Below are positions 1-24,438 of a DNA stretch of 64,000 nucleotides, piece after piece (the first letter of the stretch is position 1; every line of letters begins with the position of its first letter). Position numbers and translations under genes: made by a program. The notes under the pieces were generated by a model. The model saw nothing but the letters and a program-made list of their open reading frames with translations. It had not been told where the DNA came from and searched no databases. Origin of the DNA: Glycomyces artemisiae (GTDB lineage: Bacteria > Actinomycetota > Actinomycetes > Mycobacteriales > Micromonosporaceae); the NCBI RefSeq assembly GCF_003002955.1, contig NZ_PVTJ01000007.1:1-64000 (forward strand). The letters run 5' to 3'.

Positions 1-741
1 TACGAGGCGATGGCCGGGGTCCGCTACGACCACGAGCCGGCCCAGCGCGGGGCGCTCCCGGCCGAGGAGGACTGGGACACCCGCTCCTACCTCCGCCACG
101 TGCCCACCGTCTTCGAAGCCGTCCGGAACGAGTTCGGGCCGGAACTCCCACTGCTGCACGACGCCCACCACCGCCTCACCCCCATCCAGGCCGCGCAGCT
201 CGGCAAGTCCCTGGAGCCGTTCGACCTGTTCTGGCTTGAAGACGTCACCCCCGCCGAGAACCAGGAGGCCCTGCGCCTGGTCCGCCAGCACACGACCACG
301 CCCCTGGCGATCGGGGAGATCTTCAATACGGTGTGGGACTACCAGCAGATCATCCGCGAGCAGCTCATCGACTACGTCCGAAGCGCGGTCACCCACACCG
401 GGGGCATCTCGCATTTGAAGAAGGTCCTCGACTACGCCGCGCAGTACCAGATCAAGTCGGGGATGCACGGGCCCACCGACATCTCGCCGGTGGGCATGGC
501 CGCGGCCATGCACCTGGGCCTGGCGATCCACAACTTCGGCATCCAGGAGTACATGCAACACGGCGCCAAGACCGACCAGGTCTTCCAGCAGTCGTTCACG
601 TGGACCGACGGCCACCTCCACCCCGGCCACCAACCCGGGCTCGGCGTCGACCTCGACACCGACGAAGCCGGGAAGTACCCCTACGTCCAGGCGTACCTCC
701 CCTTCAACCGCCTCCACGACGGCACCATCCACGACTGGTGA
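1..741 (+). CDS. manD: D-mannonate dehydratase (ManD/RspA-type enolase superfamily), 5' truncated
   Basis: The reading frame is open from base 1, so the N-terminus lies outside the window. The remaining 246 residues match the barrel and C-terminus of the mannonate dehydratase branch of the mandelate racemase/enolase superfamily. Visible motifs are HDAHHRLTP (catalytic His on the barrel), FWLEDVTPAEN (metal-binding Glu), IGEIF (metal-binding Glu) and HGPTDISPVG with the conserved catalytic His. The family dehydrates D-mannonate to 2-keto-3-deoxygluconate in the cytoplasm, a step of glucuronate catabolism. It overlaps gluconokinase by 4 bp (GTGA) and heads the sugar operon seen here. Some members of this family have low activity and may act on D-gluconate, so the substrate is inferred. 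The beta-glucuronidase at 13355 supports the glucuronate route. Confidence 0.88.
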   Translation, partial: YEAMAGVRYDHEPAQRGALPAEEDWDTRSYLRHVPTVFEAVRNEFGPELPLLHDAHHRLTPIQAAQLGKSLEPFDLFWLEDVTPAENQEALRLVRQHTTTPLAIGEIFNTVWDYQQIIREQLIDYVRSAVTHTGGISHLKKVLDYAAQYQIKSGMHGPTDISPVGMAAAMHLGLAIHNFGIQEYMQHGAKTDQVFQQSFTWTDGHLHPGHQPGLGVDLDTDEAGKYPYVQAYLPFNRLHDGTIHDW

Positions 742-1274
742 ACACTCAAGCGCCCCAAGCGATCGTGGTCATGGGAGTCGCGGGCTCCGGCAAGACCACC
801 ATCGCCGCTCTGCTCGCCGCCCGCATCGGCGGCGACGTCGTCGACGCCGACGACCTCCACCCCGCCACGAACGTCGCCAAGATGGCCGCGGGCACCCCGC
901 TCACCGACGACGACCGGTGGCCCTGGCTCGCGGAGGTGGGCGCGGCGATCCGCAAGCGCCTCGCCGCCGGACGGCCCGTCGTGGTCGCGTGCTCCGCACT
1001 GCGCCGCGTCTACCGCGAATCGATCACCGCCGGCGCCGGGACGCCGGTGCAGTTCGCGCACCTCGACGGCGCGCATGAGCTCATCGCCGCGCGGATGGCC
1101 GCGCGGGCCGGGCACTTCATGCCCACCGGACTCCTCGACTCGCAGTTCGCGACCCTCGAACCGCTGGAGCCGGACGAACCGGGCTTCGCCGTCGCCATCG
1201 ACGGCAGCCCCGACGCAACCGCGGAGGCGATCGCCTTCCGCCTGGACGACGCAAGGAAAGCGAGCCCCGCATGA
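738..1274 (+). CDS. gntK: Gluconokinase
   Basis: This is a 178-aa P-loop kinase of the usual GntK length. It has a Walker A motif GVAGSGKT at residues 13-20, followed by the family motifs DADDLHP, NVAKMAAGTPLTDDDRWPWL and ACSALRRVYR. It phosphorylates D-gluconate to 6-phosphogluconate with ATP in the cytoplasm, feeding the pentose phosphate pathway. The GTG start at 738 overlaps the mannonate dehydratase stop by 4 bp, and the gene's own stop overlaps the next ATG (ATGA), so the three genes are translationally coupled. An ATP-grasp or KDG kinase is excluded by the motifs. In this context it may serve gluconate released by, or made from, the same sugar pathway. Confidence 0.9.
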   Translation: MNTQAPQAIVVMGVAGSGKTTIAALLAARIGGDVVDADDLHPATNVAKMAAGTPLTDDDRWPWLAEVGAAIRKRLAAGRPVVVACSALRRVYRESITAGAGTPVQFAHLDGAHELIAARMAARAGHFMPTGLLDSQFATLEPLEPDEPGFAVAIDGSPDATAEAIAFRLDDARKASPA

Positions 1275-2281
1275 ACGATCCAGCGCCGCTCACCGCGCAG
1301 AGCACCATCGACGCCTGGCTGCGGCATCCGAAGGGCGAGCCGCTCATCAAGGGCCTCCTCGCGCAGTCCGGTGTCGCCGAGGACATGCTGGCGCCCGTAC
1401 GGAACCTGCCGCTCCAGCAGCTCGTGGCCGTCAGCCAGGGGCAGATGCCGCAGTCGGTCGTGGACGACCTGGTGCTGCGGGCGAACGACGGCGTCGCCCC
1501 GACCGAGACCGCGGACTCGGGCCGATGGCACGAGACCGTCGTGCCCGGGCGATTCGGCGGCAGGACCGTGATCGTCACCGGAGCCGCCTCCGGGATCGGC
1601 CGGGCCACCGCGTCGCGCATCGCACGGGAGGGCGGCCGTGTGGTCGCCGTCGACGTGACGGCCGACCGCCTGCATGAACTCGCCGAGGAGCTGCCGTCGG
1701 TCACCGCCGTCAGAGCGGACATCACCGATCAGGCCGACATCGACCGGATCGCGGCGGTCGCGGGCGAGCGCATCGACGGCCTGGCGAACGTCGCGGGCGT
1801 CACCGACGACTACTCACCGGTCCACGAGACCACCGATGCCATGTGGGACAGGGTGCTCGGCATCAACCTCACCGGGAGCTTCAAGCTGACGCGCGCCGTC
1901 GCACCGGTCATGCTCGCCGCAGGGAGGGGCTCGATCGTCAACGTGGCCTCGGAGGCGGCGCTGCGCGGGAACTCCGCGGGCACCGCCTACACCGTCTCCA
2001 AGCACGGCGTAGTGGGCCTGACCAGGTCGGCGGCGTTCATGTACGGACCGCAAGGGGTGCGCGTCAACGCGATCGCACCCGGTGCGGTCGCCTCCGGCAT
2101 CGCGATGCCCGCGAACATCTCAGCGGCCGGACACGCCCGCATCGCGCCGTTCCAGCAGGCCATCCCCTCACTGGCCGTGCCCGAACAGCTGGCGGCGTCG
2201 ATCACGTTCCTGCTCAGCGACGACGGCGTCAACATCAACGGCGCCGTCCTCCCTTCCGACGGCGGCTGGTCCGTCCAGTAG
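1271..2281 (+). CDS. SDR-family sugar dehydrogenase with an N-terminal helical extension
   Basis: Residues about 95-336 are a complete classical short-chain dehydrogenase. They include TGAASGIG (103-110) for the NAD(P) phosphates, NVAG in the usual place, a catalytic Ser after NVAS, Y240-x3-K244 (YTVSK) and the C-terminal DGGWSVQ. Residues 1-90 are extra. This segment looks like the short helical tail that ends many actinobacterial family-3 or GH2 glycosidases (an aspartate/proline/glycine turn, then LPLQQLVAVSQGQMP). The gene sits between gluconokinase (ATGA overlap) and a sugar transporter, so a uronate or aldonate oxidoreductase, for example fructuronate to mannonate, is a reasonable inference. 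The exact substrate cannot be read from sequence. Confidence 0.8.
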   Translation: MNDPAPLTAQSTIDAWLRHPKGEPLIKGLLAQSGVAEDMLAPVRNLPLQQLVAVSQGQMPQSVVDDLVLRANDGVAPTETADSGRWHETVVPGRFGGRTVIVTGAASGIGRATASRIAREGGRVVAVDVTADRLHELAEELPSVTAVRADITDQADIDRIAAVAGERIDGLANVAGVTDDYSPVHETTDAMWDRVLGINLTGSFKLTRAVAPVMLAAGRGSIVNVASEAALRGNSAGTAYTVSKHGVVGLTRSAAFMYGPQGVRVNAIAPGAVASGIAMPANISAAGHARIAPFQQAIPSLAVPEQLAASITFLLSDDGVNINGAVLPSDGGWSVQ

Positions 2282-2385
2282 CACCGGTCGGCCCCCTCGC
2301 CCTCCAACTTCACAACGCCCTCACCGCGAGCGGGGCGCCACCGGCACCCGGCGCACCGCTCGCAAACCACGACAAAGGAGTCGAC

Positions 2386-3696
2386 ATGCCCGAAGACACT
2401 CGGGAACCGGCGGCGCAGTCCCTTCCGGACGCCGCACCCGGGGCGATCGCCGCCCCGCCCCTCCAGCGCGTCAGCACTGCCTACCTCGTCTGGCTCGCCG
2501 TCGCGGCCTTCGGCGGCTCGCTCGCCATGATGGTGCCGCTCTCCTACTCCCTCGCCCTGCGGATCGACGAGATCGCGCCCGGCCGCGAGGAGCTCCTCGG
2601 CTTCGTCACCGGGTCGGCACAGTTCACCTACCTCGCGCTCAGCCCTCTGATCGGCCTGTGGAGCGACCGGCTGCGGTCGCGGTTCGGCCGCCGCACCCCG
2701 TTCATGGCCGCCGGGGCCCTGCTCGGCCTGGTCGCCATGGGCGGCATCGCACTCGCCGGGAACGTGCTCCTCGTGGGCCTGTTCTGGGTGATCGGCATGG
2801 CGGGCTGGTCTGTTGCGGGCCAGGCGATCCAGAACCTCCAAGCCGACCGGGTGCCCGAGGAGCAGCGCGGGCGCGTCTCGGCGCTCACCGGCGTCGCCGT
2901 CCAGGTCGCGCCGGTGCTCGGCATCGGGATCGCCTACGCGTTCGCCTCCAATGAACTGCTCGTGTTCATGGTCCCCGCGGCCGTGGGCGTCGCCCTCATG
3001 CTGCTGCTCCCGGTGTTCAAGCCCGAGGGCGACTCGCGCGCGCTCGTGGGCGCAGGCGCCCACGTCACGGTCAAGGGCCTGATCACCAGCTACGGCTTCA
3101 ACCCGCGGAAGTACCCGGACTTCGGCTGGAACTGGCTCGGCCGGTTCATCTTCTTCATGGGCCTGTACTTCAACACGACGTTCAGCACGTTCTTCTACGC
3201 GCAGCGCCTCGACCTGCCCGTCAAGGAAGTCGCCGGAGTCCTCGCGGTCATCGGGATCATCGGCGTGGCCGCGGCCGCGGGCGGCGCCGTCGCGGGCGGG
3301 TTCCTCTCCGACAAGCTCCAGCGCCGCAAGCTCTTCGCCCTGATCGGCGCGGGGATCTTCGTCGCGGGCGCGGTGACCGAGGCGTTCGCGTACTCGCTGC
3401 CGCAGCTCATCGCGGGCATGGTGCTCATGCAGCTCGCCATCGCGGTGTTCGCCACGGTCGACCAGGCCATCGCCTTCGCCGTGCTCCCCGACCGCGCCCA
3501 GGCCGGCCGCTACCTCGCGGTGGTGGCCTTCGCGCAGAAGATCCCCAGCGCGATAGCGCCGCTCATCGCGCCGTTCATCATCACCGTCGGCGCGGGCGGC
3601 GGCGACAAGAACTACACGCTGCTGTACCTGTGCGGCGCGGTCTTCGCGCTCGCGGGCGGCCTCGTCATCGCCACCAAGATCAAGTCCGTCCGATAG
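2386..3696 (+). CDS. MFS sugar transporter (GPH/SLC45-like)
   Basis: This is a 436-aa integral membrane protein with about 12 hydrophobic segments, starting after a 30-residue hydrophilic N-terminus. The loop 2-3 signature GLWSDRLRSRFGRRTPF is the MFS motif A variant typical of sugar:cation symporters and plant-sucrose-transporter-like proteins, and an analogous FLSDKLQRRKLF loop starts the second half. The ATG at 2386 is fixed by an AAAGGAG ribosome site at 2374-2380. It lies between the SDR and the alpha-L-rhamnosidase in the same direction, so uptake of a monosaccharide or disaccharide such as rhamnose, glucuronate or gluconate is the likely job. Substrate and coupling ion are inferred. 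Confidence 0.82.
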   Translation: MPEDTREPAAQSLPDAAPGAIAAPPLQRVSTAYLVWLAVAAFGGSLAMMVPLSYSLALRIDEIAPGREELLGFVTGSAQFTYLALSPLIGLWSDRLRSRFGRRTPFMAAGALLGLVAMGGIALAGNVLLVGLFWVIGMAGWSVAGQAIQNLQADRVPEEQRGRVSALTGVAVQVAPVLGIGIAYAFASNELLVFMVPAAVGVALMLLLPVFKPEGDSRALVGAGAHVTVKGLITSYGFNPRKYPDFGWNWLGRFIFFMGLYFNTTFSTFFYAQRLDLPVKEVAGVLAVIGIIGVAAAAGGAVAGGFLSDKLQRRKLFALIGAGIFVAGAVTEAFAYSLPQLIAGMVLMQLAIAVFATVDQAIAFAVLPDRAQAGRYLAVVAFAQKIPSAIAPLIAPFIITVGAGGGDKNYTLLYLCGAVFALAGGLVIATKIKSVR

Positions 3697-3709
3697 CGAA
3701 AGGCACGCA

Positions 3710-6331
3710 ATGACTCAGCAACCCCAGGGCCTGCGGATCGACTCCGGCGGTGACCAGTTCCCCGTGTCAGGGCCCGCGCCGCGGCTCTCCTGGCTGCCGG
3801 TGGCCGGCGCCGGCCGGTACCGGCTCGAAGCGGAGGTCGACGGCGAGGCGCAGACGCAAGTCGAGGTGGACGGGCACCGGTTCGTGCCGTGGCCGTGGGC
3901 GCCGCTGGGCAGCGCCCGGCGGGTGCGCTGGCGGGTGCGGACCGGCGACGCGGTCTCAGACTGGCACGCGTTCGAGAGCGGACTGTTCGAGGCCGACTGG
4001 ACCGCGGAGTGGATCTCCCCGGTCGAGACCGGCAACGAGCCGTTCGGGCAGCGACCGGCGTACACGTTGAGCACGGACTTCGAAGCGCGGGAAGGCGTGC
4101 GATCGGCGCGGCTGTACTCGACGGCGCTGGGGGTGTACGAGGCGTTCGTCAACGGCGTGCGGGTCGGGACCGCGGAGCTGTCGCCGGGGTCGACCTCCTA
4201 CGACCGAACCTTGTACGCGCAGGCGGCCGCGGCCGCGGTGCTGCCGGGCGCGAACCGGATCGAAGTGCTGCTGTCGGACGGCTGGGTGCGCGGCGAAGTC
4301 GGCGCCTTCCGCGAACCCGCCGGTTGGGACGGCCCCACGGGCGTGCGGCTCGAACTCCACGTCGCGTACGAGGACGGCACCCGGCAAGTGGTTCGCAGCG
4401 ACGGGTCGTGGACGAGCCACCGCTCCCAGGTGGTCCGCGCGGGACTGATGGACGGCCAGACCGTGGATCTGCAAGCGCCGCAGGAGGACCCGGTGCCGGT
4501 CCTGACCGGCCGGGCCGAGGCGCCGCCTGTGGACTGGTCCCCCGCTCCGCCCGTCCGGGTGGTGGAGACGCGGCCCGCGGTGTCGCTCAAGCAGATCGAT
4601 GACGGCACCTGGATCGCCGACTTCGGCCAGAACGCCTCCGGGTGGATCGCCCTGAGCGACCTCGGCCCGTCTGGGACCCGCACCGTCATCGAGTACGGCG
4701 AGCACCTCGGCCCGGACGGCGACCTGACGACCGCGCACCTCGACGCGACCTCGCCTGAAGGCAAGGAGGTGGTGTTCCGCCAGCGCGACGAGGTCGTCTC
4801 CTCCGGCGCGCCCGGGGTGTTCGAGCCGCGGCACACCGTGCACGGCTTCCAGTACGCCCGGATCACCCGGGACGCGCCGCTCAACGCGGACGCGGTGGCG
4901 ATGCGGGTCGTCCACAGCGATCTGGCGCCGGCGGGCGACTTCGCTTGCAGCGACGACGACCTCAACCGGCTGCACGAGGTCGCGAAATGGAGCTTCCGCG
5001 GGAACGCCGTGGACATTCCCACGGACTGCCCGACCCGCGAGCGCATCGGCTGGACCGGCGACTACCAGGTGTTCGCACCGACCGCCACGCGCCTGTACGA
5101 CGTCCTGGGGTTCAGCCGCAAATGGCTGCGCAGCGTGCGCGACGACCAGTGGGACGACGGGCGCATCGCGAGCTTCTCCCCCGACGGGCGGCGCACCAAG
5201 CTCAACCCGCAGCTGCGGCTCGCGATGATGACCGGCTCGGCAGGGTGGGCCGACGCGATCGTGCTGGTGCCGTGGGAGCTGTACACCGCATACGGCGACT
5301 CCGAAGTGCTCGCGGAGAACTGGGAGGCGATGGTCCGGTGGGTCGAGTGGGCCCTCGGCAATGCCGCCTCGGCGCGGCACGCCTCGCGCATCGAGCGCTC
5401 GGCCGAGCCGCTGCCGCACGAACGGTACCTCTGGGACGGATCGTTCCACTGGGGAGAGTGGTGCGAGCCGAAGCCGAAAGGCCCGGACGGGAAGTCGTAC
5501 GACCCGATCCAGGTGAACCCGACCGCATGGTTCACCTCGGACAAAGGCGAGATCGGCACGGCGTACCTCTACCGGTCCACGAGCGTCCTGGCGCGGATCG
5601 CGGGCCTGCTCGGGCGGGCCGAAGAGGCCGCGCGGTACGGGGCGACCGCGGCGCGGGTGCTGGACGCGTGGCGCACCGAGTTCCTCGACGAGCACGGCCA
5701 CACCGCGGTCGACAACCAGCCGAGTTATGTGCGGGCGTTGCATTTCGGCCTGATCCCCGACGAGTTGCGGGAGCGCGCGGTGGACCGGCTCGCGGCGCTG
5801 ATCCGCGAGGCGGACACGCACTTGACGACCGGGTTCCTGGCGACCGCGGACCTCCTGCCGGTCCTGGCCGACCACGGCCGCGCCGACCTCGCGTACGAGC
5901 TGCTGTTCCAGCGCACCGAGCCGTCGTGGCTGGGGATGCTCGACCGCGGCGCGACGACGATCTGGGAGAACTGGGACGGCGTGGACGAGGACGGCGAGGC
6001 GCACGAATCGCTGAACCACTACAGCAAGGGCGCGGTGATCCGCTTCCTGCACACGCACACCCTCGGGCTGCGGCAGGACGAGGACTCGGCGGCATGGGAG
6101 TCGTTCACCGTGGCGCCCTTCCCGCACGCGTCGCTGACGTGGGCGCGCGGACACCTCGACACTCCCCAGGGGACGATCAGGGTCGACTGGGCGGTCGAGG
6201 GCGGCGAACTCGCCCTCACCGTCGAGGTCCCGCCCGGGACCTCCGCGACGATGGCCCTCCCCGACGGCACGACCCGCACCGCCGCGCCCGGCGTCCACCG
6301 CGCGGCCTGCCGCCTGGACGAAGGGCACTGA
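3710..6331 (+). CDS. Alpha-L-rhamnosidase, GH78
   Basis: An 873-aa protein with the GH78 layout: an N-terminal beta-sandwich, the Bac_rhamnosid_N domain (about 100-270), a concanavalin-like domain, the (alpha/alpha)6 catalytic barrel from about 420 to 760, and a C-terminal sandwich. The catalytic signature DCPTRERIGWTGD starts at D439, placing the proposed general acid at E444. TTIWENWDG supplies the proposed general base E753. Hydrolysis of terminal alpha-L-rhamnose is the family's activity. There is no signal peptide, so it should act in the cytoplasm on imported glycans. It is spaced 13 bp from the transporter and 1 bp from the GH43 gene, consistent with one operon. Confidence 0.92.
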   Translation: MTQQPQGLRIDSGGDQFPVSGPAPRLSWLPVAGAGRYRLEAEVDGEAQTQVEVDGHRFVPWPWAPLGSARRVRWRVRTGDAVSDWHAFESGLFEADWTAEWISPVETGNEPFGQRPAYTLSTDFEAREGVRSARLYSTALGVYEAFVNGVRVGTAELSPGSTSYDRTLYAQAAAAAVLPGANRIEVLLSDGWVRGEVGAFREPAGWDGPTGVRLELHVAYEDGTRQVVRSDGSWTSHRSQVVRAGLMDGQTVDLQAPQEDPVPVLTGRAEAPPVDWSPAPPVRVVETRPAVSLKQIDDGTWIADFGQNASGWIALSDLGPSGTRTVIEYGEHLGPDGDLTTAHLDATSPEGKEVVFRQRDEVVSSGAPGVFEPRHTVHGFQYARITRDAPLNADAVAMRVVHSDLAPAGDFACSDDDLNRLHEVAKWSFRGNAVDIPTDCPTRERIGWTGDYQVFAPTATRLYDVLGFSRKWLRSVRDDQWDDGRIASFSPDGRRTKLNPQLRLAMMTGSAGWADAIVLVPWELYTAYGDSEVLAENWEAMVRWVEWALGNAASARHASRIERSAEPLPHERYLWDGSFHWGEWCEPKPKGPDGKSYDPIQVNPTAWFTSDKGEIGTAYLYRSTSVLARIAGLLGRAEEAARYGATAARVLDAWRTEFLDEHGHTAVDNQPSYVRALHFGLIPDELRERAVDRLAALIREADTHLTTGFLATADLLPVLADHGRADLAYELLFQRTEPSWLGMLDRGATTIWENWDGVDEDGEAHESLNHYSKGAVIRFLHTHTLGLRQDEDSAAWESFTVAPFPHASLTWARGHLDTPQGTIRVDWAVEGGELALTVEVPPGTSATMALPDGTTRTAAPGVHRAACRLDEGH

Positions 6332-6332
6332 C

Positions 6333-8138
6333 ATGGACGACCTCGGCCACTACTGCAACCCCCTGGACCTGGCGTACCGGTACCAGGACCTCCGGTTCAA
6401 GGGGGTCGTGCAGGGCGTCGTCTTCGGCGAGCCGCGGCGCAGCGTCCACCGTGAGGGCGCGGACCCCTCGGTGGTGCGCTTCCGGAACCGGTTCTACCTG
6501 TTCGCGTCGATGTCGCGCGGGTTCTGGCACTCCGCCGACCTCGTGGACTGGGAGTACCGCGCGAGCGAGGCGCTGCCCGCCTACGACTACGCGCCCGACG
6601 CCCGCGTGATCGACGGAGCGCTGATCGTATGCGCTTCCAAGAAGGACGCTCCGTGCCCGTTCTTCCGGAGCGAGGACCCGCTCACCGGCGACTTCACCGA
6701 GGTCGCGCCCGGGACGTTCCCGTTCTGGGACCCGAACCTGTTCCAGGACGAGGACGGCAAAGTGTTCCTCTACTGGGGATGCAGCAGCACCGTACCCGTT
6801 CGGGGCGTGCAGGTCGATCCCGAGAGCTTCACGCCGCTGGGCGAGCCGGTGGACCTCGTCGCCGCCGACACGACCGCGCGCGGCTGGGAGCGGACCGGCG
6901 AGGACCACGTCAAGGCGGTCCCGCGCACCGAGCTGGAGCGGAAGATCGCGCAGTTCCAATCCGGCGAGCCGTACATCGAGGGCGCCTGGATGACCAGGCG
7001 CGGCGACACGTACTACCTCCAGTACGCGGCGCCGGGGACGCAGTGGAACACCTACGCGGACGGGTACTTCACGAGTCCGTCGCCGCTCGGGCCGTTCGCG
7101 TACTCACCCCACAGCCCGTTCTCCTCCAAACCCGGTGGCTTCGCAACCGGCGCCGGGCACGGCAGCACCTTCCAAGACGCGCATGGCAACTGGTGGCACG
7201 CCGCCACCATGCGGATCTCGGTGAACGACCCGTTCGAGCGGCGGGTCGGGATCTTCCCGGCCGGGTTCGACGCGGACGGCGTGCTCTTCTGCAACCAGCA
7301 CTTCGGCGACTACCCGCGGCCCGTCCCGGCCGGGTCCGCCGACCCGTGGGCCGATCCGCCGTGGATGCTCCTGTCCTACCGCGCCGAGGCGACCGCCTCG
7401 TCATCGCTGGCCGGGCACGGCCCGGCGCTGGCGGCGGACGAGGACATCCGCACGTGGTGGGCGGCCGGATCGCGGGAGCCCGGCGAGTGGGTGTCGCTCG
7501 ACCTCGGTGCGACCCAGCGGGTCCACGCGATCCAGGTGAACCTGGCCGCCCACGGGGTGGACGCGCCGGAGTGCCCTGACGGCGTGGACGTCGGGCATTC
7601 GTGGCGGGGCGTTTTTGCCGAGCACCAGGCCGCGGAGTTCCTCGTGGAGGTGTCGGCGGACGGCGCCGCCTGGGAAGCCGTGCGGGACACGCGCGGCACC
7701 GGCGAAGACGGGCCCCACGCGCTCGTCGTCCTCGAAGGCGGGCGACAGGTCCGGCACGTGCGCGTCACGGCCGGGCGACAGCCCTTCGACGCCGTGTTCG
7801 CGGTGAGCGGGCTGCGGGTGTTCGGGATCGGCGGCGGCCCCGCACCGGAACCGGTTGCCGTGACGGCGGTCCGAACCGACGACCTGACCGCGCGGCTCGA
7901 CTGGCCCGAATCGCCCGGCGCGGACGGCTACAACGTCAGGTACGGCGCCCATCCCGAGAAGCTCTACCAGAGCCGCCTGGTGCATGGGCGCAACGAGCTG
8001 GAACTGCGGACCCTCAACGCGGACACGGACTACTGGGTCGCCGTGGACGCGTTCAACGGCGGCGGGATCGCTCCCGGGACCACGGTCCGGGTCGTAACGA
8101 ACGGGCCACAGCCTGAGAATGTCGTGGCAATCGATTGA
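6333..8138 (+). CDS. GH43-like glycosidase with discoidin (F5/8C) and fibronectin III domains
   Basis: Residues about 40-340 form a five-bladed propeller glycosidase resembling GH43. The expected acidic triad is visible as GADPS (D44, base), FWDPN (D133, pKa modulator) and YIEGAW (E216, acid). Residues about 347-495 look like an F5/8 type C (discoidin) carbohydrate-binding domain, and about 505-595 like a fibronectin III domain. There is no signal peptide, which is odd for a protein with binding domains normally found outside the cell. GH43 members act on arabinosides, xylosides and, in some subfamilies, beta-1,3-galactans. The subfamily cannot be settled by eye. The start lies 1 bp after the rhamnosidase stop. 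Confidence 0.85.
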   Translation: MDDLGHYCNPLDLAYRYQDLRFKGVVQGVVFGEPRRSVHREGADPSVVRFRNRFYLFASMSRGFWHSADLVDWEYRASEALPAYDYAPDARVIDGALIVCASKKDAPCPFFRSEDPLTGDFTEVAPGTFPFWDPNLFQDEDGKVFLYWGCSSTVPVRGVQVDPESFTPLGEPVDLVAADTTARGWERTGEDHVKAVPRTELERKIAQFQSGEPYIEGAWMTRRGDTYYLQYAAPGTQWNTYADGYFTSPSPLGPFAYSPHSPFSSKPGGFATGAGHGSTFQDAHGNWWHAATMRISVNDPFERRVGIFPAGFDADGVLFCNQHFGDYPRPVPAGSADPWADPPWMLLSYRAEATASSSLAGHGPALAADEDIRTWWAAGSREPGEWVSLDLGATQRVHAIQVNLAAHGVDAPECPDGVDVGHSWRGVFAEHQAAEFLVEVSADGAAWEAVRDTRGTGEDGPHALVVLEGGRQVRHVRVTAGRQPFDAVFAVSGLRVFGIGGGPAPEPVAVTAVRTDDLTARLDWPESPGADGYNVRYGAHPEKLYQSRLVHGRNELELRTLNADTDYWVAVDAFNGGGIAPGTTVRVVTNGPQPENVVAID

Positions 8139-8205
8139 CAACTTCAATCAACAGCTGATGTACTACCTGACAACCCGGCTGTTCCCTCAAACCGTCAATC
8201 GGTTG
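8128..8205 (+). promoter_or_regulatory. Candidate promoter flanked by two LacI-type operators
   Basis: Two similar palindromes with a central CG lie 68 bp apart: CAATCGATTG (8128-8137, perfect) and CAATCGGTTG (8196-8205, one mismatch). Extending each by three bases keeps most positions paired for the first site. A TTGACA hexamer (8135-8140) with a weak ATGTAC hexamer 17 bp downstream lies between them. The arrangement suits a LacI-family sugar repressor controlling the ABC importer and GH2 genes. No LacI gene is present in the window, so the regulator is unknown. Confidence 0.4.
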
Positions 8206-8240
8206 CCGGATTGCCTTTTCACACGAAGGAGTCTGAAAAG

Positions 8241-9776
8241 ATGCCAACGACCTCTCACCGCCGCGGGGCGGCCGCGATCGCCTCCGCGGCGGTCCTCTCC
8301 TCGCTCCTGGCCGCCTGCGGCGGACAGGACTCCTCTGACGGGTCCGGGGCGACCGAACTCGCCCTGGCCGCCTTCTCCGGCCCCAACTCCCTCGATCCGG
8401 CCCAGCTCGTGGACGGCCAGCAGATGTTCGTGTGGTCCTCGATCCTGGACACGCTCCTCGCCCGCGACTACGAGACCGGCGAGCTGATCCCCAACGCCGC
8501 CGAGTCCTGGGAGTACAACGAGGACGGCACCGAGCTCACCCTCCACTTGAGGGACGACATGACGTTCAGCGACGGCGACCCGGTGGACGCCGTGGCCGTC
8601 GCCGCCACCATGGAACGCAACCGGACCACCGCCGGGATCGTGCAGGTCAAGTACGGCGCGGTGCAGAGCATCACCGCCGTCGACGAGCACACGGTGACGG
8701 TGGCGTTCACGCACAACGACCCCCAGTTCCTGCCGAACCTGGCCCTGAGCACCGGCGCGATCGGCGACCCCGACACCCTCGATGACGAGCGCACCGCAAC
8801 CGACCCGATCGGCTCGGGCCCGTACACGCTCGACACCGCGAACACCGTGCCCGGCACGACGTACGTGCTCAAGAAGCGCGAGGACTACTGGAACGCCGAC
8901 GCGTACGACTTCGAGAAGGTCACCGTGCGAGTCCTCCAGGACCCCACCGCGTCGCTCAACGCGCTCCAGGCGGGCGAGATCAACGCCGCGACCGTCCAGG
9001 CCCAGGTCTCCGGGCAGCTCGACCAGAACAGGTTCGCGCTCCAGCAGATCGACGCCCAGGCGACGGCGTACCTCGACATCCTCGACCGCGGCGGGGAGCA
9101 GTGGCCCGCGCTCGGCGACGTGCGCGTGCGCCAGGCCATCAACTACGCGATCGACCGCGAGGGCATCCTCGACTCGATCATGGCCGGCGTCGGCATGGCC
9201 ACCACCCAGATCTACAGCCCCTACGGCGAGGTCTACGACGAGTCGCTCAACGACGCGTACCCGTACGACCCCGACAAGGGCCGGGCGCTCGTGGAGGAGG
9301 CCGGGTACGAGGGGACCGTGTTCACGATCCCGAGCACGTTCCTGTCGACCTCGTACGAGTCGGTCCTCTCGCAGGCGTTCGAGGACATCGGCCTCGGCCT
9401 CGAATGGGAGGCCGTGCCGCCGCAGCAGGCGCAGTCCGCGCACCTCTCCGGCGACTACCCGCTCTCGTTCCAGGTCACCGGCTTCAACTCCCCCGAGGCC
9501 GACTCGGTCTCCCACTTCGGCGCGAGCGGCTACTCGAACCCGCGCGGCTACACCGACGCCACGGTCGACGCCCTGTTCGAGCAGATCAACTCCACAGTAG
9601 ACCTGGAGGAGGCGCTGCCGTCCTACCGCGAACTCAACGCGTACGCGGTGGAGCAGGCGTTCGAGGCGCCGATCGTCTTCACCGGCGGCCTGTGGGCCAC
9701 CGCCGACGGCATCTCCCTGACCACCACGGGCGCGTCCACGATCTCCACGGTCCGCCTGTTCGACGTCGAATCCTGA
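8241..9776 (+). CDS. ABC transporter substrate-binding lipoprotein, oligopeptide/oligosaccharide type (SBP family 5)
   Basis: A 511-aa extracytoplasmic solute-binding protein of the DppA/OppA family. The N-terminus has two Arg, a hydrophobic stretch and a lipobox LLAAC, so it should be lipid-anchored at C26. The body shows the family's hallmarks: NSLDPAQ, AESWEYNEDGTELTLHLRDDMTFSDGDPV, GSGPYTL and VRQAINYAIDRE. The ATG at 8241 is chosen because AAGGAG lies at 8226-8231; an in-frame ATG 30 bases upstream would spoil the signal peptide. It begins the four-gene importer operon, and its glycosidase neighbours suggest it binds oligosaccharides rather than peptides, as several actinobacterial members do. 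Confidence 0.9.
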   Translation: MPTTSHRRGAAAIASAAVLSSLLAACGGQDSSDGSGATELALAAFSGPNSLDPAQLVDGQQMFVWSSILDTLLARDYETGELIPNAAESWEYNEDGTELTLHLRDDMTFSDGDPVDAVAVAATMERNRTTAGIVQVKYGAVQSITAVDEHTVTVAFTHNDPQFLPNLALSTGAIGDPDTLDDERTATDPIGSGPYTLDTANTVPGTTYVLKKREDYWNADAYDFEKVTVRVLQDPTASLNALQAGEINAATVQAQVSGQLDQNRFALQQIDAQATAYLDILDRGGEQWPALGDVRVRQAINYAIDREGILDSIMAGVGMATTQIYSPYGEVYDESLNDAYPYDPDKGRALVEEAGYEGTVFTIPSTFLSTSYESVLSQAFEDIGLGLEWEAVPPQQAQSAHLSGDYPLSFQVTGFNSPEADSVSHFGASGYSNPRGYTDATVDALFEQINSTVDLEEALPSYRELNAYAVEQAFEAPIVFTGGLWATADGISLTTTGASTISTVRLFDVES

Positions 9777-9825
9777 ACCCGACCCGGGAGGGGCGCCGTC
9801 CCCTCCCGGTCCGACAGGGGCAACC

Positions 9826-12511: not shown

Positions 12512-12515
<4 letters not shown>
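10764..12515 (+). CDS. Fused ABC permease (DppC type) and ATPase (DppD type)
   Basis: A single 583-aa frame holds both proteins normally encoded by dppC and dppD. Residues 1 to about 295 are a DppC permease with [22 protein letters not shown], five or six membrane segments and the coupling loop [22 protein letters not shown] short linker (about 295-310) leads to a complete ABC ATPase with Walker [10 protein letters not shown]-loop PQEP, signature ISGGMAQR, Walker [13 protein letters not shown] and switch HNFG, ending in the oligopeptide-type HPYTRMLL tail. The GTG at 10764 overlaps the upstream stop. The fusion would tether one ATPase to one permease. Confidence 0.9.
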
Positions 12516-13354
<839 letters not shown>

Positions 13355-15118
13355 ATGCTACGACCGCAGAACTCACCCACGCGCGAGCTGGTGAACCTGG
13401 ACGGGCTCTGGCGCTTCGCCCTGGACGACGACGCCGGACCTGAGCCGTGGACCGGCGTCCTTCGGACCGACCTCGAAGCGCCCGTTCCCGCGAGCTACAA
13501 CGACGTGTTCGCGGACGACGCGATCCGCGACCACGTGGGCTGGGTCTGGTACCAGCGGACCGTGCGGGTGCCGCGCGGGTGGGCCGGTGAACGGGTGCGG
13601 GTCCGCATCGATGCGGCAACCCACGAGGGTCGTGTCTATGTGGACGGCTCATTGGTGGCCGAGCACGTGGGCGGGTACACGCCGTTCGAAGCGGACGTCA
13701 CGGACCTGGTCGAGCCGGGTGGTGAGTTCAGGCTCACGATCGGGGTGAACAACGAGCTGACGCCGACGACGATCCCGCCGGGGTTCACGACCACGACCGA
13801 CGACGGCCGCCGCAAGCAGCTGTACCGGCACGACTTCTACAACTACGCGGGCCTCGCGAGGTCGGTGTGGCTCTACAGTGTCCCGGCCGTGTCGGTCGAG
13901 GACGTCACGGTGGTCTCCGGTCTCGACGGGACGACGGGCGTCGTCGAGTACGAGGTCGCGGCCGGTGCGGCGGTGCGGGTGCGGCTGCTCGACGCCGAGG
14001 GCGCGACCGTGGCCGAGCGGGAGGGCGCCTCGGGCGAGCTCCGGGTCCCGGACGCGAGGCTGTGGCGTCCGGGGGCGGCGTACCTGTACGAGCTGGTCGC
14101 GGAAGTCGTCGAGGACGGGGCCGTCGTGGACTCGTACTCGCAGCCGGTCGGCATCCGCACGGTCGAAGTGCGCGGCACCGAACTGCTGATCAACGGGGAG
14201 CCGTTCTACTTCAAGGGCTTCGGGAAGCACGAGGACACCGCGGTGCGCGGCAAGGGCCACGACCCGGCGTACATGGTGCACGACTTCCGGCTCATGGACT
14301 GGTGCGGCGCAAACTCGTTCCGCACCTCGCACTACCCGTACGCCGAAGAGGTGCTCGACTACGCGGACCGGCACGGGATCGTGGTCATCGACGAGACCGC
14401 CGCGGTGGGTCTCAACCTCGCGATCGGCGGCGGGATGCGCACCGGTGCGGTGGAGCGGACCTTCGGCGAGGACGGCTTCGGCAAGGCGACCCGCGAGGCC
14501 CACGCGCAGGCGATCCGGGAGCTGATCCAGCGCGACAAGAACCACCCGTCGGTCGTCATGTGGTGCATCACTAACGAGCCCGCCTCGTTCGAGGACGGCG
14601 CCCGCGACTACTTCGCGCCGCTGGTGGACCTGACCCGCGAACTCGACGCGACGCGGCCGGTCACGTACGCCAATCTCGTCTTCGCGACCTTCGAGACCGA
14701 CACGATCGCCGACCTGTTCGACGTGATCTGCCTGAACCGCTACTACGGCTGGTACAACGACACCGGCGACCTCGCCAGCGCCGAAGCGCATCTGGAGGCG
14801 GAGCTGCGCGGCTGGGAGGCGCGGTTCGGGAAGCCGCTCGTCATGACCGAGTACGGCGCGGACACCCTCGCCGGGCTCCACTCGGTCAACGCGCAGCTGT
14901 GGACCGAGGATTTCCAGACCGCGCTGCTGGAGACGTACCACCGGGTCTTCGACCGCGTCCCTGCCGTCATCGGCGAGCAGGTGTGGAACTTCGCCGACTT
15001 CCAGACCATGGCCGGGGTCTTCCGCGTCGACGGCAACAAGAAGGGCGTCTTCACGCGGGACCGCCGCCCGAAAGCGGCCGCTCGCGTGCTCCGGAAGCGC
15101 TGGCGGGGACAGGACTGA
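13355..15118 (+). CDS. uidA: Beta-glucuronidase-like GH2 enzyme
   Basis: A 587-aa GH2 enzyme close in length and order to bacterial UidA: jelly-roll sugar-binding domain (1-180), Ig-like domain (about 180-275) and TIM barrel (275-587). The N-terminal [18 protein letters not shown] is typical of beta-glucuronidases. In the barrel the acid/base is E408 (NEPAS) and the nucleophile E499 (TEYGAD). The GKHED and [13 protein letters not shown] segments are those that recognise the glucuronate carboxylate in characterised members. There is no signal peptide, so it is cytoplasmic. It starts immediately after the ATPase stop, so it is the last gene of the importer operon and its substrate should arrive through that transporter. 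Confidence 0.9.
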
Positions 15119-15192: not shown

Positions 15193-16410
15193 TCAGACGG
15201 CGGCGATGTCGATTGCCTTGTGCTCCATGCCCGGAGGCTGGGCGCGGCTGCCGAGGACTCTGCTGAGGACCGGTGAGCCCATGAGCCGTGTCATCACGGC
15301 TCGCGCGAGGTACTCCTTGCGGTCGTGGGGCGTGAACAGGCTCCGCGTGGTGAACGCCGACTCCTGCTCCACTGCGATGAACGGGCGCAGGCGGGCTTCC
15401 CATTCGCGGAGCGCGGCGGGGACGTCGCCGACGTGGCGTTCGAGCATGGTGCCGAGCAGTTCGCCGCCCGCGATGCCGCTGGAGGCGCCCATGCCCGCGT
15501 ACAGGGTCACGCACCAGGCGGCGTCGCCGACCAGGACGACCCGGCCGTCGTGCCAGCGCGGCATCCGCACCTGGTTGACCGAGTCGAAGAGGAATTCGTC
15601 GGCAGATTCGAAGCGGGAGAACAGCTCCTCTAGGATTGGGCCGGGCGGTTGCGGTCCGAACGCGGCCCTGATGGACTCGATCGGGGCGCGGCTGAACTCG
15701 GCGTCGACGTTCTGCGTGCGGTAGGAGAACAGCAGGCTCGGCGGGTGGTCCTTGAACGGGAACATCCAGGCCGAGCGGCCGGGTTCAGCCAGGATCATGC
15801 CCTCGCCCGTGCCGTAGCCGGTGACTGGCCGGTCGAGAAGGGTCACGCCGATCATGTAGTCGAGCGGGTGCAGGAAGTCCTCGGGGCCGAAGGTGAGCCG
15901 ACGGACCGTGGAGCGCATGCCGTCGGCGCCGACGACCAGGTCGAACCGCTCGGTGGTGGTCGTGTCGGCGGCGGTGTCGTGGAGGTCGACCTCGGCGGCG
16001 GTGGCGTCCTGTGCGATGCGGGTCGGGACGGTCGAATAGCGGATCTCGACGTCGTCGGGAAGGGCGTCGAAGAGGGCCCGTTCGGCGTCGCCGCGCAGCA
16101 GGGTCCGAGGCGGGTTGGGGCCGAGGGTGGCCGGGTTCAAGCCCGTTCTGCGGCGCCCGGCGCGGTTGACCGAGTCGAGGCGCACGTCAGGGCCGCTGCG
16201 GTCGCCGATGGCGTCGAGGACGCCCAGTCGCTGCGCGGAGGCGATCCCGGCGCCGAACAGCATGATGAAATATCCGCCGGAGCGGCGCGCGGGGGCGCGT
16301 TCGATCACGACCGGCTCCCAGCCGATCTGCCGCAGCCGCAACGCGGTCGCGATCCCGGCGATCCCGAGGCCCACCACCAGCGCACGGGGGCGTCCATTGA
16401 GGTTTCCCAT
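15193..16410 (-). CDS. FAD-dependent monooxygenase (PheA/TetX-like aromatic hydroxylase fold)
   Basis: A 405-aa single-component flavoprotein. The Rossmann motif VVGLGIAGIATALRLRQIGW lies at the N-terminus, DLVVGADGMRS (the DG motif binding FAD and NADPH) lies mid-protein, and GDAAWCVTLYAGMGASSG binds the FAD ribityl chain. The ATG at 16410 is preceded by AAAGGAG with a 7-base spacer, which excludes a longer in-frame start. Family members hydroxylate aromatic or polycyclic compounds, and the TetX branch inactivates tetracyclines. It is 19 bp downstream of a lipocalin-like gene and both are probably repressed by the divergent TetR protein. Detoxification or tailoring of a small aromatic is an inference. 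Confidence 0.82.
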   Translation of the reverse strand: MGNLNGRPRALVVGLGIAGIATALRLRQIGWEPVVIERAPARRSGGYFIMLFGAGIASAQRLGVLDAIGDRSGPDVRLDSVNRAGRRRTGLNPATLGPNPPRTLLRGDAERALFDALPDDVEIRYSTVPTRIAQDATAAEVDLHDTAADTTTTERFDLVVGADGMRSTVRRLTFGPEDFLHPLDYMIGVTLLDRPVTGYGTGEGMILAEPGRSAWMFPFKDHPPSLLFSYRTQNVDAEFSRAPIESIRAAFGPQPPGPILEELFSRFESADEFLFDSVNQVRMPRWHDGRVVLVGDAAWCVTLYAGMGASSGIAGGELLGTMLERHVGDVPAALREWEARLRPFIAVEQESAFTTRSLFTPHDRKEYLARAVMTRLMGSPVLSRVLGSRAQPPGMEHKAIDIAAV

Positions 16411-16429
16411 TGCATTGCTCCTTTCGGAT

Positions 16430-17323: not shown

Positions 17324-17352
17324 GGCCAGACCCTACCCCACTTGAGTACCAG

Positions 17353-17377
17353 TTGACCAGATTTGAAATTTGGTCAA
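17353..17377. promoter_or_regulatory. Inverted-repeat operator between the lipocalin-like gene and tetR
   Basis: TTGACCAGAT (17353-17362) and ATTTGGTCAA (17368-17377) are inverted 10-base arms with one mismatch around a 5-base centre. The site lies in the 83-bp divergent gap, as expected for a TetR protein repressing itself and the monooxygenase unit. Confidence 0.65.
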
Positions 17378-17406
17378 TCAGAATTGTGGCGTGAGATACT
17401 GGGCCC

Positions 17407-23151: not shown

Positions 23152-23181
23152 GCAACCGCACTCGATGAAAGGAGCGCTGCA

Positions 23182-24438
23182 ATGAGCATTTCCCGACGGA
23201 CCTTCCTCGGTGTCACCGCGGCCGCCGCCGCGACGGCCGCCACCGTGTCCGGAGCCTACGCCGCCCTGGGCGAGCCGACAGTTGGCGCAGCTGCGAGCGC
23301 GCCAGGCGACGTCGTCGGCAAGGTCACGGCCGGCTACCAGGGCTGGTTCGCGTGCCGCGGCGACGGCGCGCCGATCGACGCCTGGTGGCACTGGGCCCGC
23401 CAGGCCGACCAGCCGCCCTCGCTCTCCAACACGGCGATCAAGTCCTGGCCCGACCACCGCGAGTACGCGAAGACCTATGGGACGGGCTTCCCCCCGCTGG
23501 GCGACGGGCGCCTGGCGCACCTGTTCTCCTCGTACGACCAGCAGTCCGTCGATGTCCACTTCCGCTGGATGGCGGAGAACGGAATCCACACGGCGGCGCT
23601 GCAGCGGTTCAACCCGTTCGGGTCCGAGGGGCCGACGCGCGACGCTGTCGCCGACCGGGTGCGCTCCGCCGCGGAGCGCAGCGGCAGGAAGTACTACATC
23701 ATGTACGACGTGAGCGACTGGCTCTCGATGCGCACGCAGATCACGCAGGACTGGGCGGCGAAGATGTCGGCCCACACCGGCTCGTCCGCCTACGCCCGGC
23801 AGAACGGCAGGCCGGTGGTCGGGATCTGGGGCTTCGGGTTCAACGACGCGCAGCGTCCGTTCACTCCGCAGGAGTGCCAGGAGGTCGTCGACTGGTTCAA
23901 GGGCCAGGGCGTGTACCTCATGGGCGGCGTCCCCACCTGGTGGCGCACCCTGGGCGACGACTCGCGGCCCGGCTTCGCGGACGTGTACCGCTCGTTCGAC
24001 ATGATCTCGCCGTGGCTCGTCGGCCGGATCGGCAGTGTCGGCGACGCCGACAACTTCTACAACGTCGCGACCGTTCCGGATCTCGCCGAATGCGGCCGCC
24101 TGGGGATCGACTACCAGCCGTGCACGCTGCCGGGCGACCTCCAGGAGCGGCAGCGGGTGCACGGCGACTTCATGTGGCGCCAGTTCTACAACCACGCGCG
24201 CGCGGGCGTGACCAGCACCTACATCTCGATGTTCGACGAGTACAACGAGGGGAACCAGATCGCCAAGACCGCTGAGAACGCCGGCCAGGTCCCTTCGGGG
24301 TCGGGCATCTGGGCGCTCGACGAGGACGGCACCGCCTGCTCCTCGGACTACTACCTGCGCTTGACGAACGACGGCGGCCGGATGCTGCGGGGCGAGATCC
24401 CGGTGACCTCGGCGCGTCCGACGCCTCCGCGGCTGTGA
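23182..24438 (+). CDS. Tat-exported GH71/GH99-like glycosidase
   Basis: A 418-aa protein beginning with a twin-arginine signal (SRRTFLGV, then an Ala-rich hydrophobic stretch to about residue 37). The mature part starts VVGKVTAGYQGWFACRGDGAPIDAWWHW, the conserved opening of the GH71/99-like family, and continues with KYYIMYDVSDW, VVGIWGFGFND and TSTYISMFDEYNEGNQI. The acidic residues in these barrel-strand motifs are candidate catalytic groups. A GAAAGGAG ribosome site precedes the ATG 30 bp after the beta-helix gene, so the two exported proteins are probably co-transcribed. GH99 enzymes are endo-mannosidases and GH71 are alpha-1,3-glucanases; the substrate here is unknown. Confidence 0.8.
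   Translation: MSISRRTFLGVTAAAAATAATVSGAYAALGEPTVGAAASAPGDVVGKVTAGYQGWFACRGDGAPIDAWWHWARQADQPPSLSNTAIKSWPDHREYAKTYGTGFPPLGDGRLAHLFSSYDQQSVDVHFRWMAENGIHTAALQRFNPFGSEGPTRDAVADRVRSAAERSGRKYYIMYDVSDWLSMRTQITQDWAAKMSAHTGSSAYARQNGRPVVGIWGFGFNDAQRPFTPQECQEVVDWFKGQGVYLMGGVPTWWRTLGDDSRPGFADVYRSFDMISPWLVGRIGSVGDADNFYNVATVPDLAECGRLGIDYQPCTLPGDLQERQRVHGDFMWRQFYNHARAGVTSTYISMFDEYNEGNQIAKTAENAGQVPSGSGIWALDEDGTACSSDYYLRLTNDGGRMLRGEIPVTSARPTPPRL

What the first reader, a model, noticed from the sequence alone, without database searches (positions are those of the whole stretch)
1..24438. PUL-like locus for a rhamnose- and glucuronate-capped polysaccharide
One locus carries a GH78 rhamnosidase, a GH43 enzyme, a GH2 beta-glucuronidase, an oligopeptide-type importer, mannonate dehydratase, gluconokinase and two exported polysaccharide-active proteins. 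GH78, GH43 and GH2 lack signal peptides, implying import of intact oligosaccharides before trimming. Terminal Rha on GlcA is a hallmark of arabinogalactan proteins and gum arabic, so such a glycan fits all the parts. The tandem beta-helix and GH71/99-like proteins do not match a known degradation scheme and could supply a new backbone-cutting activity.
Basis: partly seen in the sequence, partly recalled or inferred. Interest (0 to 1): 0.8.

Follow-up and report, generated by a model that had tools for sequence, protein, structure and literature searches.

The report
Operon for Rha/GlcA plant glycosides
A soil actinobacterium (probably Glycomyces) carries an operon that appears to import small plant glycosides bearing rhamnose and glucuronic acid, perhaps saponins, and strip their sugars inside the cell; the two secreted proteins next door look like a separate system.

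Summary
Module A (1-15118) is a tight 11-gene run: ManD (cut by the contig start), gluconokinase, SDR, MFS, GH78, GH43, Opp-type ABC importer, GH2 beta-glucuronidase. Its glycosidases show no signal peptide. It probably continues on contig C3, which ends inside a ManD gene after LacI, UxaC, UxuB-like, GH1, SDR and a second beta-glucuronidase; that would complete a glucuronate route.
Module B (18931-24438) is an exported tandem beta-helix protein plus a GH99-like protein. Both occur together in 4 of 80 examined loci; GH78, GH43 and GH2 in none, so B probably does not supply a backbone cutter for A.
The nearest GH43 relatives sit with different subsets of GH78, GH1, GH2, MFS and LacI. The closest (63%, beside a 63% identical GH1) lies next to KshA-, KstD- and Hsa-like steroid-degradation genes. 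The nearest described kind is the glycoalkaloid trisaccharide utilisation locus (GH78, GH3, GH2). Best reading: a glucuronide variant for small plant glycosides, most likely glucuronide saponins, rather than an arabinogalactan PUL. The substrate and the contig join are inferred.

The parts
1..741 (+). ManD mannonate dehydratase, C-terminal part (gene cut by the contig start)
   Evidence: NF043051 profile positions 165-403, 389.8 bits, below the 550 cut-off; contig start
744..1274 (+). GntK-type gluconokinase
   Evidence: TIGR01313 174.7 bits, cut-off 113.75; gap to ManD 2 nt
1271..2281 (+). SDR oxidoreductase with an extra N-terminal domain of about 72 aa resembling the C-terminal tail of GH3 enzymes
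   Evidence: adh_short 169.5 bits; tail matches; full-length orthologues of 59-73% in 11 genomes
2386..3696 (+). MFS transporter
   Evidence: PF07690; 48% to an MFS in the G045 steroid/GH island, 34% to the MFS of the Clavibacter cluster
3710..6331 (+). GH78 alpha-L-rhamnosidase, no leader seen
   Evidence: PF17389 328.7 bits; best solved relative 3w5m, E 8.6e-104
6333..8138 (+). GH43 glycosidase with F5/8 and fn3-like domains, no leader seen
   Evidence: PF04616 87.6 bits; triad D44/D133/E216 invariant in 10 of 10 sequences; relatives
8241..9776 (+). SBP family 5 lipoprotein of an Opp/Dpp-type importer
   Evidence: PF00496 229.2 bits
9826..10767 (+). Opp/Nik-type permease 1
   Evidence: NF045470 212 bits, below the 350 cut-off
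10764..12515 (+). fused permease 2 and ATPase 1
   Evidence: ORF; sequence read; not scanned against a family library
12512..13354 (+). ATPase 2 of the importer
   Evidence: ORF; sequence read; not scanned against a family library
13355..15118 (+). GH2 beta-glucuronidase (GUS type), no leader seen
   Evidence: NF007538 863.3 bits, cut-off 544; best solved relative 5c70 884.1 bits, next group 3k4a/3k46 740-738 bits; NEP at 407, TEYG at 498, GNKKG at 560
15193..16377 (-). FAD_binding_3 monooxygenase; not part of the operon
   Evidence: PF01494
16430..17323 (-). CrtC N-terminal lipocalin-type protein; not part of the operon
   Evidence: PF07143
17407..18141 (+). TetR regulator; not part of the operon
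   Evidence: PF00440
18931..23151 (+). module B: exported F5/8 / tandem PF12708 beta-helix / InlB-like protein
   Evidence: relatives in L033-L036; tandem-helix fold, weak model
23182..24438 (+). module B: Tat-type leader, GH99/GH71-like protein
   Evidence: no Pfam or NCBIfam hit at E 0.001; Foldseek ranks 1-14 all GH99; E353 and E356 invariant in 21 of 21

Best explanation
The finding covers two unrelated modules. Module A (1-15118, very likely continuing upstream into the end of contig C3) is a catabolic operon for a small rhamnosylated glucuronide glycoside of plant origin, most likely a glucuronide saponin such as the soyasaponin type (Rha - Gal/Ara/Xyl - GlcA - aglycone; structure recalled). 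Proposed steps: the Opp-type ABC importer and the MFS carrier bring the intact glycoside into the cytoplasm. GH78 removes the outer rhamnose. GH43 removes the middle pentose or galactose, with GH1 for glucosylated forms. The two GH2 enzymes release the glucuronic acid from the aglycone. UxaC, the UxuB-like dehydrogenase and ManD turn glucuronate into 2-keto-3-deoxygluconate. Shown: gene content, spacing, intact catalytic motifs; absence of leaders was judged by eye. Inferred: order of cleavage, substrate, contig adjacency. Module B (18931-24438) is a separate exported pair of a tandem beta-helix protein and a GH99-like putative endo-alpha-mannosidase/mannanase.
For: Run of 11 co-directional genes, gaps -4 to 104 nt. 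C3 end: UxaC (511.8 bits, cut-off 387), UxuB-like, GH1, SDR, GUS-2 (873.6, cut-off 544) and the ManD N-terminus, gaps -4 to 16 nt. The C3-end GH1 is 63% identical to the GH1 adjacent to the 63% identical GH43 in G045, and 58% to the GH1 near the 54% identical GH43 in Clavibacter. GH78, GH43 and GH2 recur together in Clavibacter, Enterococcus and Subdoligranulum. The G045 GH1-GH43-GH2 genes lie beside a Rieske protein with KshA_C (297.3 bits, cut-off 23.3), two KstD-like flavoproteins, HsaA/HsaC/HsaD-like enzymes and a hydratase, aldolase and acetaldehyde dehydrogenase. The closest solved GUS is 5c70/5c71, which I recall, from no call, as an Aspergillus oryzae enzyme studied on glycyrrhizin. 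Described kind: GH78, GH3 and GH2 deglycosylate potato glycoalkaloids (PMC9597252, passages). L-rhamnose isomerase is encoded elsewhere in the genome (612.3 bits, cut-off 531.35). Module split.
Against: No biochemical evidence. GH43 activity is unknown; in Hymenobacter and Sphingobium its relatives sit near xylose isomerase and a sugar kinase, and in three Bacteroidota plasmids with SusD and BglX, so the family is not saponin-specific. G045 shows no GH78 at E 1e-8 in the 60 kb examined and its GH2 is GalA/GalB-like, not GUS. Enterococcus shows no GH1 or LacI match. The KstD, HsaA, HsaC and HsaD matches are below their cut-offs; the best family of both KstD-like proteins is an unnamed FAD-binding family, and the HsaC-like protein scores higher against biphenyl-diol dioxygenase. 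The window genome has no HsaC above cut-off (39.3 against 450). Sphingobium RC1, a described saponin degrader, uses GH3/39/78/106 and does not degrade soyasaponin Bb or glycyrrhizin (PMC10653915). The C3-C7 junction is ambiguous, because two ManD genes break at four contig ends. The UxuB-like enzyme is below every NCBIfam cut-off listed.
Confidence: 0.5

Rival explanations
1. Module A takes up Rha-GlcA-Gal(Ara) oligosaccharides cut from arabinogalactan proteins or gum arabic by enzymes encoded elsewhere, and trims them in the cytoplasm.
For: GH78, GUS, GH43 and an oligomer-type importer would fit a Rha-GlcA-Gal side chain (established glycan structure, recalled); glucuronate pathway genes.
Against: No galactanase-type family among the linked proteins scanned; the rest of the genome was not searched for AGP enzymes. 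The relatives' clusters are small-glycoside-like and one sits in a steroid-degradation island. GH43 subfamily not determined.
Confidence: 0.2
2. Module A is for flavonoid or other phenolic glucuronide/rhamnoside glycosides rather than saponins.
For: Same sugars; MFS plus cytoplasmic glycosidases suit any small glycoside; genes that look like aromatic catabolism lie at 35.2-43.3 kb of the window (by eye only).
Against: The closest GH1-GH43 pair is linked to steroid-type rather than flavonoid catabolism, in one genome.
Confidence: 0.2
3. All genes 1-24438 form one PUL in which the beta-helix and GH99-like proteins cut the backbone outside the cell.
For: Physical proximity; both look exported.
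Against: An opposite-strand block and a TetR gene lie between. The pair occurs without module A (GH78, GH43, GH2 in 0 of 80 loci) and module A relatives lack the pair (0 of 11 loci). In Promicromonospora and Cellulosimicrobium the two genes sit, not quite adjacent, with sugar-type ABC permeases (by eye), an epimerase and DUF4432, plus ThuA and Gfo/Idh in the second.
Confidence: 0.05

Closest known systems
Glycoalkaloid trisaccharide utilisation locus (RhaA GH78, GluA GH3, GalA GH2) of Glutamicibacter halophytocola S2, reported also for Arthrobacter and Serratia (PMC9597252, passages seen)
   Same: Gene cluster combining GH78 with other exo-glycosidases that remove a short sugar chain from a plant aglycone.
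   Different: Here GH2 is a beta-glucuronidase, no GH3 was found, GH43 and GH1 are added, and glucuronate catabolism and an Opp-type importer are encoded.
Clavibacter michiganensis plasmid pVQ28-1 cluster GH78-MFS-GH43-DUF5597-GH1-GH3-GH2-LacI (L151)
   Same: GH43 54%, GH1 58%, GH78 33%, MFS 34% identical.
   Different: Its GH2 is only 26% identical to the window's GUS (not scanned against a family library), and no UxaC or UxuB match was seen at E 1e-6 in the 25.7 kb; substrate unknown.
E. coli uid/uxa-type glucuronide utilisation (GusA, UxaC, UxuB; recalled)
   Same: GUS-type GH2 above the curated cut-off; UxaC above cut-off.
   Different: Enolase-superfamily ManD instead of UxuA (recalled distinction); GH78, GH43 and GH1 co-encoded; ABC plus MFS uptake.
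GH99 endo-alpha-mannanase/mannosidase (for 23182-24438)
   Same: Top 14 structural matches; an invariant ExxE segment that a weak profile alignment places on the corresponding MANEA segment.
   Different: 14-18% identity, no Pfam hit at E 0.001, and the ExxE region is modelled with pLDDT under 50; activity unknown.
GH55 tandem beta-helix glucanases (for 18931-23151)
   Same: Two successive PF12708-type helix starts; beta-1,3-glucanases of this kind are ranks 1 and 2 of the fold search.
   Different: Model poor (pLDDT 46.9), TM about 0.2, 11% identity: not a family assignment.

Membership tests
Glycoalkaloid trisaccharide utilisation locus | GH78 alpha-rhamnosidase | tested here: met
   PF17389 328.7 bits
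Glycoalkaloid trisaccharide utilisation locus | GH3 beta-glucosidase in the cluster | tested here: not met
   Of the 16 genes called in 1-24438, all but the two ATPase genes at 10764-13354 were scanned with Pfam or NCBIfam, and of the C3 end LacI to GUS-2: no GH3. GH1 present instead
Glycoalkaloid trisaccharide utilisation locus | GH2 beta-galactosidase GalA | tested here: not met
   Both GH2 enzymes score as beta-glucuronidase, 863.3 and 873.6 bits, cut-off 544
Glycoalkaloid trisaccharide utilisation locus | Deglycosylates a saponin-type trisaccharide | not testable with these tools
   needs assay
GH2 beta-glucuronidase | Full-length match above curated cut-off | tested here: met
   NF007538, both copies
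GH2 beta-glucuronidase | Catalytic glutamates and N-x-K glucuronate motif (motif recalled) | tested here: met
   NEP, TEYG and GNKKG segments aligned to 5c70; positions 407, 498, 560
GH43 | Asp/Asp/Glu triad | tested here: met
   D44, D133, E216 invariant in 10 of 10 sequences including the window's
GH43 | CAZy subfamily and activity | not testable with these tools
   no dbCAN library; no NCBIfam hit at E 0.001
AGP / gum arabic PUL | Linked secreted AGP-active galactanase | tested here: not met
   Only GH78, GH43, GH2, GH1 and the two module B proteins among linked proteins scanned; enzymes elsewhere in the genome not tested
Steroid 9,10-seco catabolism in the window genome | HsaC above cut-off | tested here: not met
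   39.3 bits against 450
GH99 | Family profile match | tested here: not met
   no Pfam family at E 0.001
GH99 | GH99-type fold | tested here: met
   Foldseek ranks 1-14 GH99, best E 6.1e-9, TM to target 0.58-0.67; model only moderate, pLDDT 65.8, pTM 0.70
GH99 | ExxE catalytic dyad in the right place (motif recalled) | tested here: inconclusive
   E353/E356 invariant in 21 of 21, but modelled at pLDDT under 50 and aligned to MANEA only by a non-significant match (E 0.58)
GH55 | Tandem beta-helix fold | tested here: inconclusive
   model pLDDT 46.9; beta-1,3-glucanases top but TM about 0.2

The most novel reading that the evidence does not exclude
The C3-end plus C7-start operon is a bacterial catabolic operon for glucuronide (soyasaponin-type) triterpenoid saponins: import intact, strip Rha, then pentose/Gal, then GlcA in the cytosol, and burn the GlcA by UxaC, UxuB and ManD. 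The GH1+GH43 pair is a wider genomic signature of saponin and sterol-glycoside use in Actinobacteria and perhaps Firmicutes.
Probability: 0.33. Interest if true: 0.65.

Novelty: new variant of a known kind. Interest (0 to 1): 0.42.

Why it matters
Glucuronide saponins such as soyasaponins and glycyrrhizin are major plant products. Bacteria that degrade glycyrrhizin in pure culture are reported, but the paper says the complete pathway has not been reported and, in the passages seen, names no specific genes for it (PMC10201799, passages). A 2026 review mentions fermentative loss of soyasaponins (Bacillus, Lactobacillus, Aspergillus) with unknown steps in its pathway figure (PMC13039779, passages). 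Four library searches (listings only: 0, 15 of 44, 8 of 217 and 12 of 29 papers shown) showed no title or abstract start describing a bacterial gene cluster for glucuronide saponins; this proves little. The operon gives a compact candidate testable with purified enzymes, and it replaces a 'novel PUL' claim with a testable small-glycoside hypothesis. The two exported proteins deserve study as a different, uncharacterised pair.

Tried and rejected
Recalled link of GH43 to Sphingobium tomatine degradation: rejected; the paper names GH3, GH39, GH78 and GH106, 'GH43' occurs 0 times in its main text, and the Sphingobium GH43 relative is a 37% plasmid gene near a beta-xylosidase gene and xylA.

SDR N-terminal extension as a relic of a lost GH3 gene in this operon: rejected; full-length SDR orthologues with the same extension (59-73%) occur in 11 other genomes of the order sample, and apart from other SDRs none of the module A proteins tested was recognised beside them in their 1.5 kb flanks.

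Resolving the contig junction by sequence: not possible; the N-halves of ManD are 97.8% and the C-halves 98.0% identical between the two candidates. C3-C7 is favoured by the GH1-GH43 linkage in relatives, by C5-type ManD being the last gene of its run in 2 of 2 relatives seen, and by LacI-UxaC-UxuB-ManD in G306, though there ManD is also last. Among the 11 stretches examined none shows UxaC/UxuB and ManD-GntK together; one (G303) has ManD-GntK alone.

Fold search for the beta-helix protein: uninformative beyond 'beta-helix'. Plasmid search with the beta-helix protein: 16 records, none covering 80%; the 16 listed rows match around the discoidin domain. Its helix part was found in 1 of 298 genomes, the own one. 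Profile search of the GH99-like family against the PDB: best GH99 match E 0.58.

Full report
Setting. The window is the first 64 kb of contig C7 (370 kb) of a 5.79 Mb, 22-contig genome. No tool names the genus. Among named genomes, the exported pair is directly adjacent in Glycomyces dulcitolivorans and G. sambucus (81-84% identical); the GH99-like protein alone is as close in two Promicromonospora (85-86%). One genome of the window's own order proved to be Amycolatopsis saalfeldensis (L010 lies within L097). From recalled genome-based taxonomy this fits Glycomyces and not Promicromonospora. Glycomyces is therefore likely, but inferred.

Module A, 1-15118. Eleven co-directional genes with gaps of -4 to 104 nt: ManD (C-terminal part only), GntK, SDR, MFS, GH78, GH43, SBP5, permease, permease-ATPase, ATPase, GH2. 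The family calls are strong for GH78, GUS-type GH2, gluconokinase and SBP5. No glycosidase shows a leader (by eye). GH43 keeps its triad in 10 of 10 sequences, the window's and 9 relatives, and GH2 keeps its catalytic segments and GNKKG.

What lies upstream. ManD is cut by the contig start. The genome holds two nearly identical ManD genes whose halves end four contigs: N-halves at the ends of C3 and C5, C-halves at the start of C7 and the end of C11. The C3 end reads: an ABC sugar importer and LacI on the minus strand, then UxaC, UxuB-like, GH1, SDR, a second GUS (66% to the first) and ManD, gaps -4 to 16 nt. The C5 end is an FAD-oxidase/heme-binding run ending in ManD, and on C11 ManD is convergent with an unrelated gene (names by eye). 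Of 11 same-genus stretches examined, the C5-type run ends with ManD in 2 of 2 cases, LacI-UxaC-UxuB-ManD occurs in G306 (ManD last there too), and ManD-GntK without UxaC/UxuB occurs in G303. No stretch shows the proposed join directly. With the GH1-GH43 linkage below, C3-C7 is my preferred join (own estimate about 0.85); it is not proven.

Relatives of module A. The GH43 is rare in the samples: 2 of 298 genomes of the order including the own one, and 1 of 396 (own) in a phylum sample at a stricter threshold. A beta-glucuronidase of this type was found in 2 of 22 genomes of the genus, the own one included. The best plasmid matches of the GH43 are Clavibacter (54%), Subdoligranulum (48%) and Enterococcus casseliflavus (44%), out of 30 matching records. 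All three have GH78 (28-35%) and GH2 nearby. Clavibacter and Subdoligranulum also have GH1 (58% and 41% to the C3-end GH1) and a LacI match; Enterococcus has neither. The annotated Clavibacter and Enterococcus clusters have an MFS gene. The five more distant relatives examined in Bacteroidota and Sphingobium have other neighbours, so the family as a whole is not tied to one substrate.

Steroid island. In G045 the closest GH43 (63%) is next to the closest GH1 (63%) and a GalA/GalB-type GH2. A GH3 (Pfam; two more by eye) and an MFS of 48% identity lie in the following 20 kb. On the other side, within about 15 kb, are a Rieske protein with the KshA C-terminal domain (297.3 bits, cut-off 23.3), two flavoproteins whose best families are unnamed FAD-binding ones and whose next are KstD families (626 and 476 bits, cut-offs 788 and 789), HsaC-, HsaD- and HsaA-like enzymes (335.9, 291.8 and 393.1 bits, below their 450, 400 and 450 cut-offs; the HsaC-like one scores 358.8 against biphenyl-diol dioxygenase), a hydratase, and an aldolase and acetaldehyde dehydrogenase above cut-off. 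This is one genome, but it is the nearest relative and it points to a sterol or terpenoid glycoside. No GH78 was seen in its 60 kb.

Reading. The nearest described kind is the glycoalkaloid trisaccharide utilisation locus: GH78, GH3 and GH2 (PMC9597252; passages). The present operon shares the idea of several exo-glycosidases, GH78 among them, for a short sugar chain, but has beta-glucuronidases and a glucuronate pathway. A glucuronide saponin (for example Rha-Gal-GlcA-soyasapogenol, structure recalled) would need a rhamnosidase, a middle-sugar glycosidase and a glucuronidase. The GH2's closest solved relatives are 5c70/5c71 (884 and 881 bits), ahead of 3k4a/3k46 (740-738; E. coli GUS, recalled); 5c70/5c71 I recall as the A. 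oryzae glucuronidase studied on glycyrrhizin, which no call states. Sphingobium RC1, a described saponin degrader, does not attack soyasaponin Bb or glycyrrhizin (PMC10653915; abstract and passages). Licorice rhizobacteria degrade glycyrrhizin in pure culture, with the genes not identified in the passages seen (PMC10201799). A 2026 review marks unknown steps in its soyasaponin pathways and cites losses during Bacillus, Lactobacillus and Aspergillus fermentation (PMC13039779; passages). The window genome lacks HsaC above cut-off, so it may use only the sugars; L-rhamnose isomerase is present, and a KDPG-aldolase-like gene scores 138.9, below its 156.05 cut-off.

Module B, 18931-24438. The GH99-like protein has 468 relatives in genome contigs, of which the best 80 were kept and examined; in the order sample it is in 23 of 298 genomes, in 0 of the 7 other same-genus genomes drawn. 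In the 80 loci (56 of them 20 kb or longer) GH78, GH43 and GH2 of module A occur 0 times and the beta-helix protein 4 times: Glycomyces x2 (adjacent), Promicromonospora (one gene between), Cellulosimicrobium (three between). In the last two the neighbourhood has sugar-type ABC permeases (by eye), an epimerase and DUF4432, and in Cellulosimicrobium also ThuA and Gfo/Idh; own-genome versions of ThuA (57%) and Gfo/Idh (68%) lie about 186 kb away on C7. The GH99-like model (pLDDT 65.8, pTM 0.70) matches GH99 endo-alpha-mannanases and mannosidases in ranks 1-14. E353 and E356 are invariant but lie in a stretch modelled at pLDDT under 50. One GH38 group occurs near 7 and one GH92 group near 4 of the 80 loci (one exemplar of each checked with Pfam), and a distant Persicobacter relative (32%) sits with two GH92 genes. 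An alpha-mannoside substrate is plausible; no background rate was computed. The beta-helix model is poor.

Verdict. Genes real, locus wrongly merged, substrate idea half right. A new variant of a known kind, moderately interesting because it is directly testable.

Noticed in passing
window 18931-24438; L033, L034, L035, L036: Exported tandem beta-helix protein plus GH99-like protein occur together outside module A, with an ABC/epimerase/DUF4432 (ThuA, Gfo/Idh) neighbourhood in Promicromonospora and Cellulosimicrobium.
   Followed up: partly
window 1271-1492; L174:4238-4429; L151:25241-25420: A domain of about 70 aa at the N-terminus of the SDR also forms the C-terminal tail of GH3 enzymes in the G045 and Clavibacter glycoside islands; not named by the Pfam scans of the SDR and of one such GH3.
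   Followed up: partly
ends of G000 contigs C3, C5, C7, C11: Two ManD genes about 98% identical break the assembly at four contig ends.
   Followed up: yes
L132 (G000:C7:208000-227900): Own-genome ThuA/Gfo-Idh/epimerase/ABC cluster whose ThuA and Gfo/Idh resemble those beside the module B genes in Cellulosimicrobium (57% and 68%).
   Followed up: partly
window 15193-18141: FAD_binding_3 monooxygenase and CrtC-type lipocalin gene divergent from a TetR gene; possible terpenoid modification, no evidence of a link to module A.
   Followed up: no
window 35235-43341: Run of genes that by eye looks like aromatic catabolism; 36307-36768 matches HsaC weakly (39.3 bits).
   Followed up: no
L122:9746-10722 (G045:C23): A second GH43 relative in G045 survives only as two fragments.
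   Followed up: no
L123:6575-9573 (G300): Another genome of the same genus has a GUS-type GH2 (54%) directly beside a putative GPH-type sugar transporter (by eye).
   Followed up: no
L168 (G302): In a same-genus genome ManD follows an SBP5/Opp-type importer and two further genes, one with a GH2-like N-terminus (all by eye), a different arrangement of the same themes.
   Followed up: no
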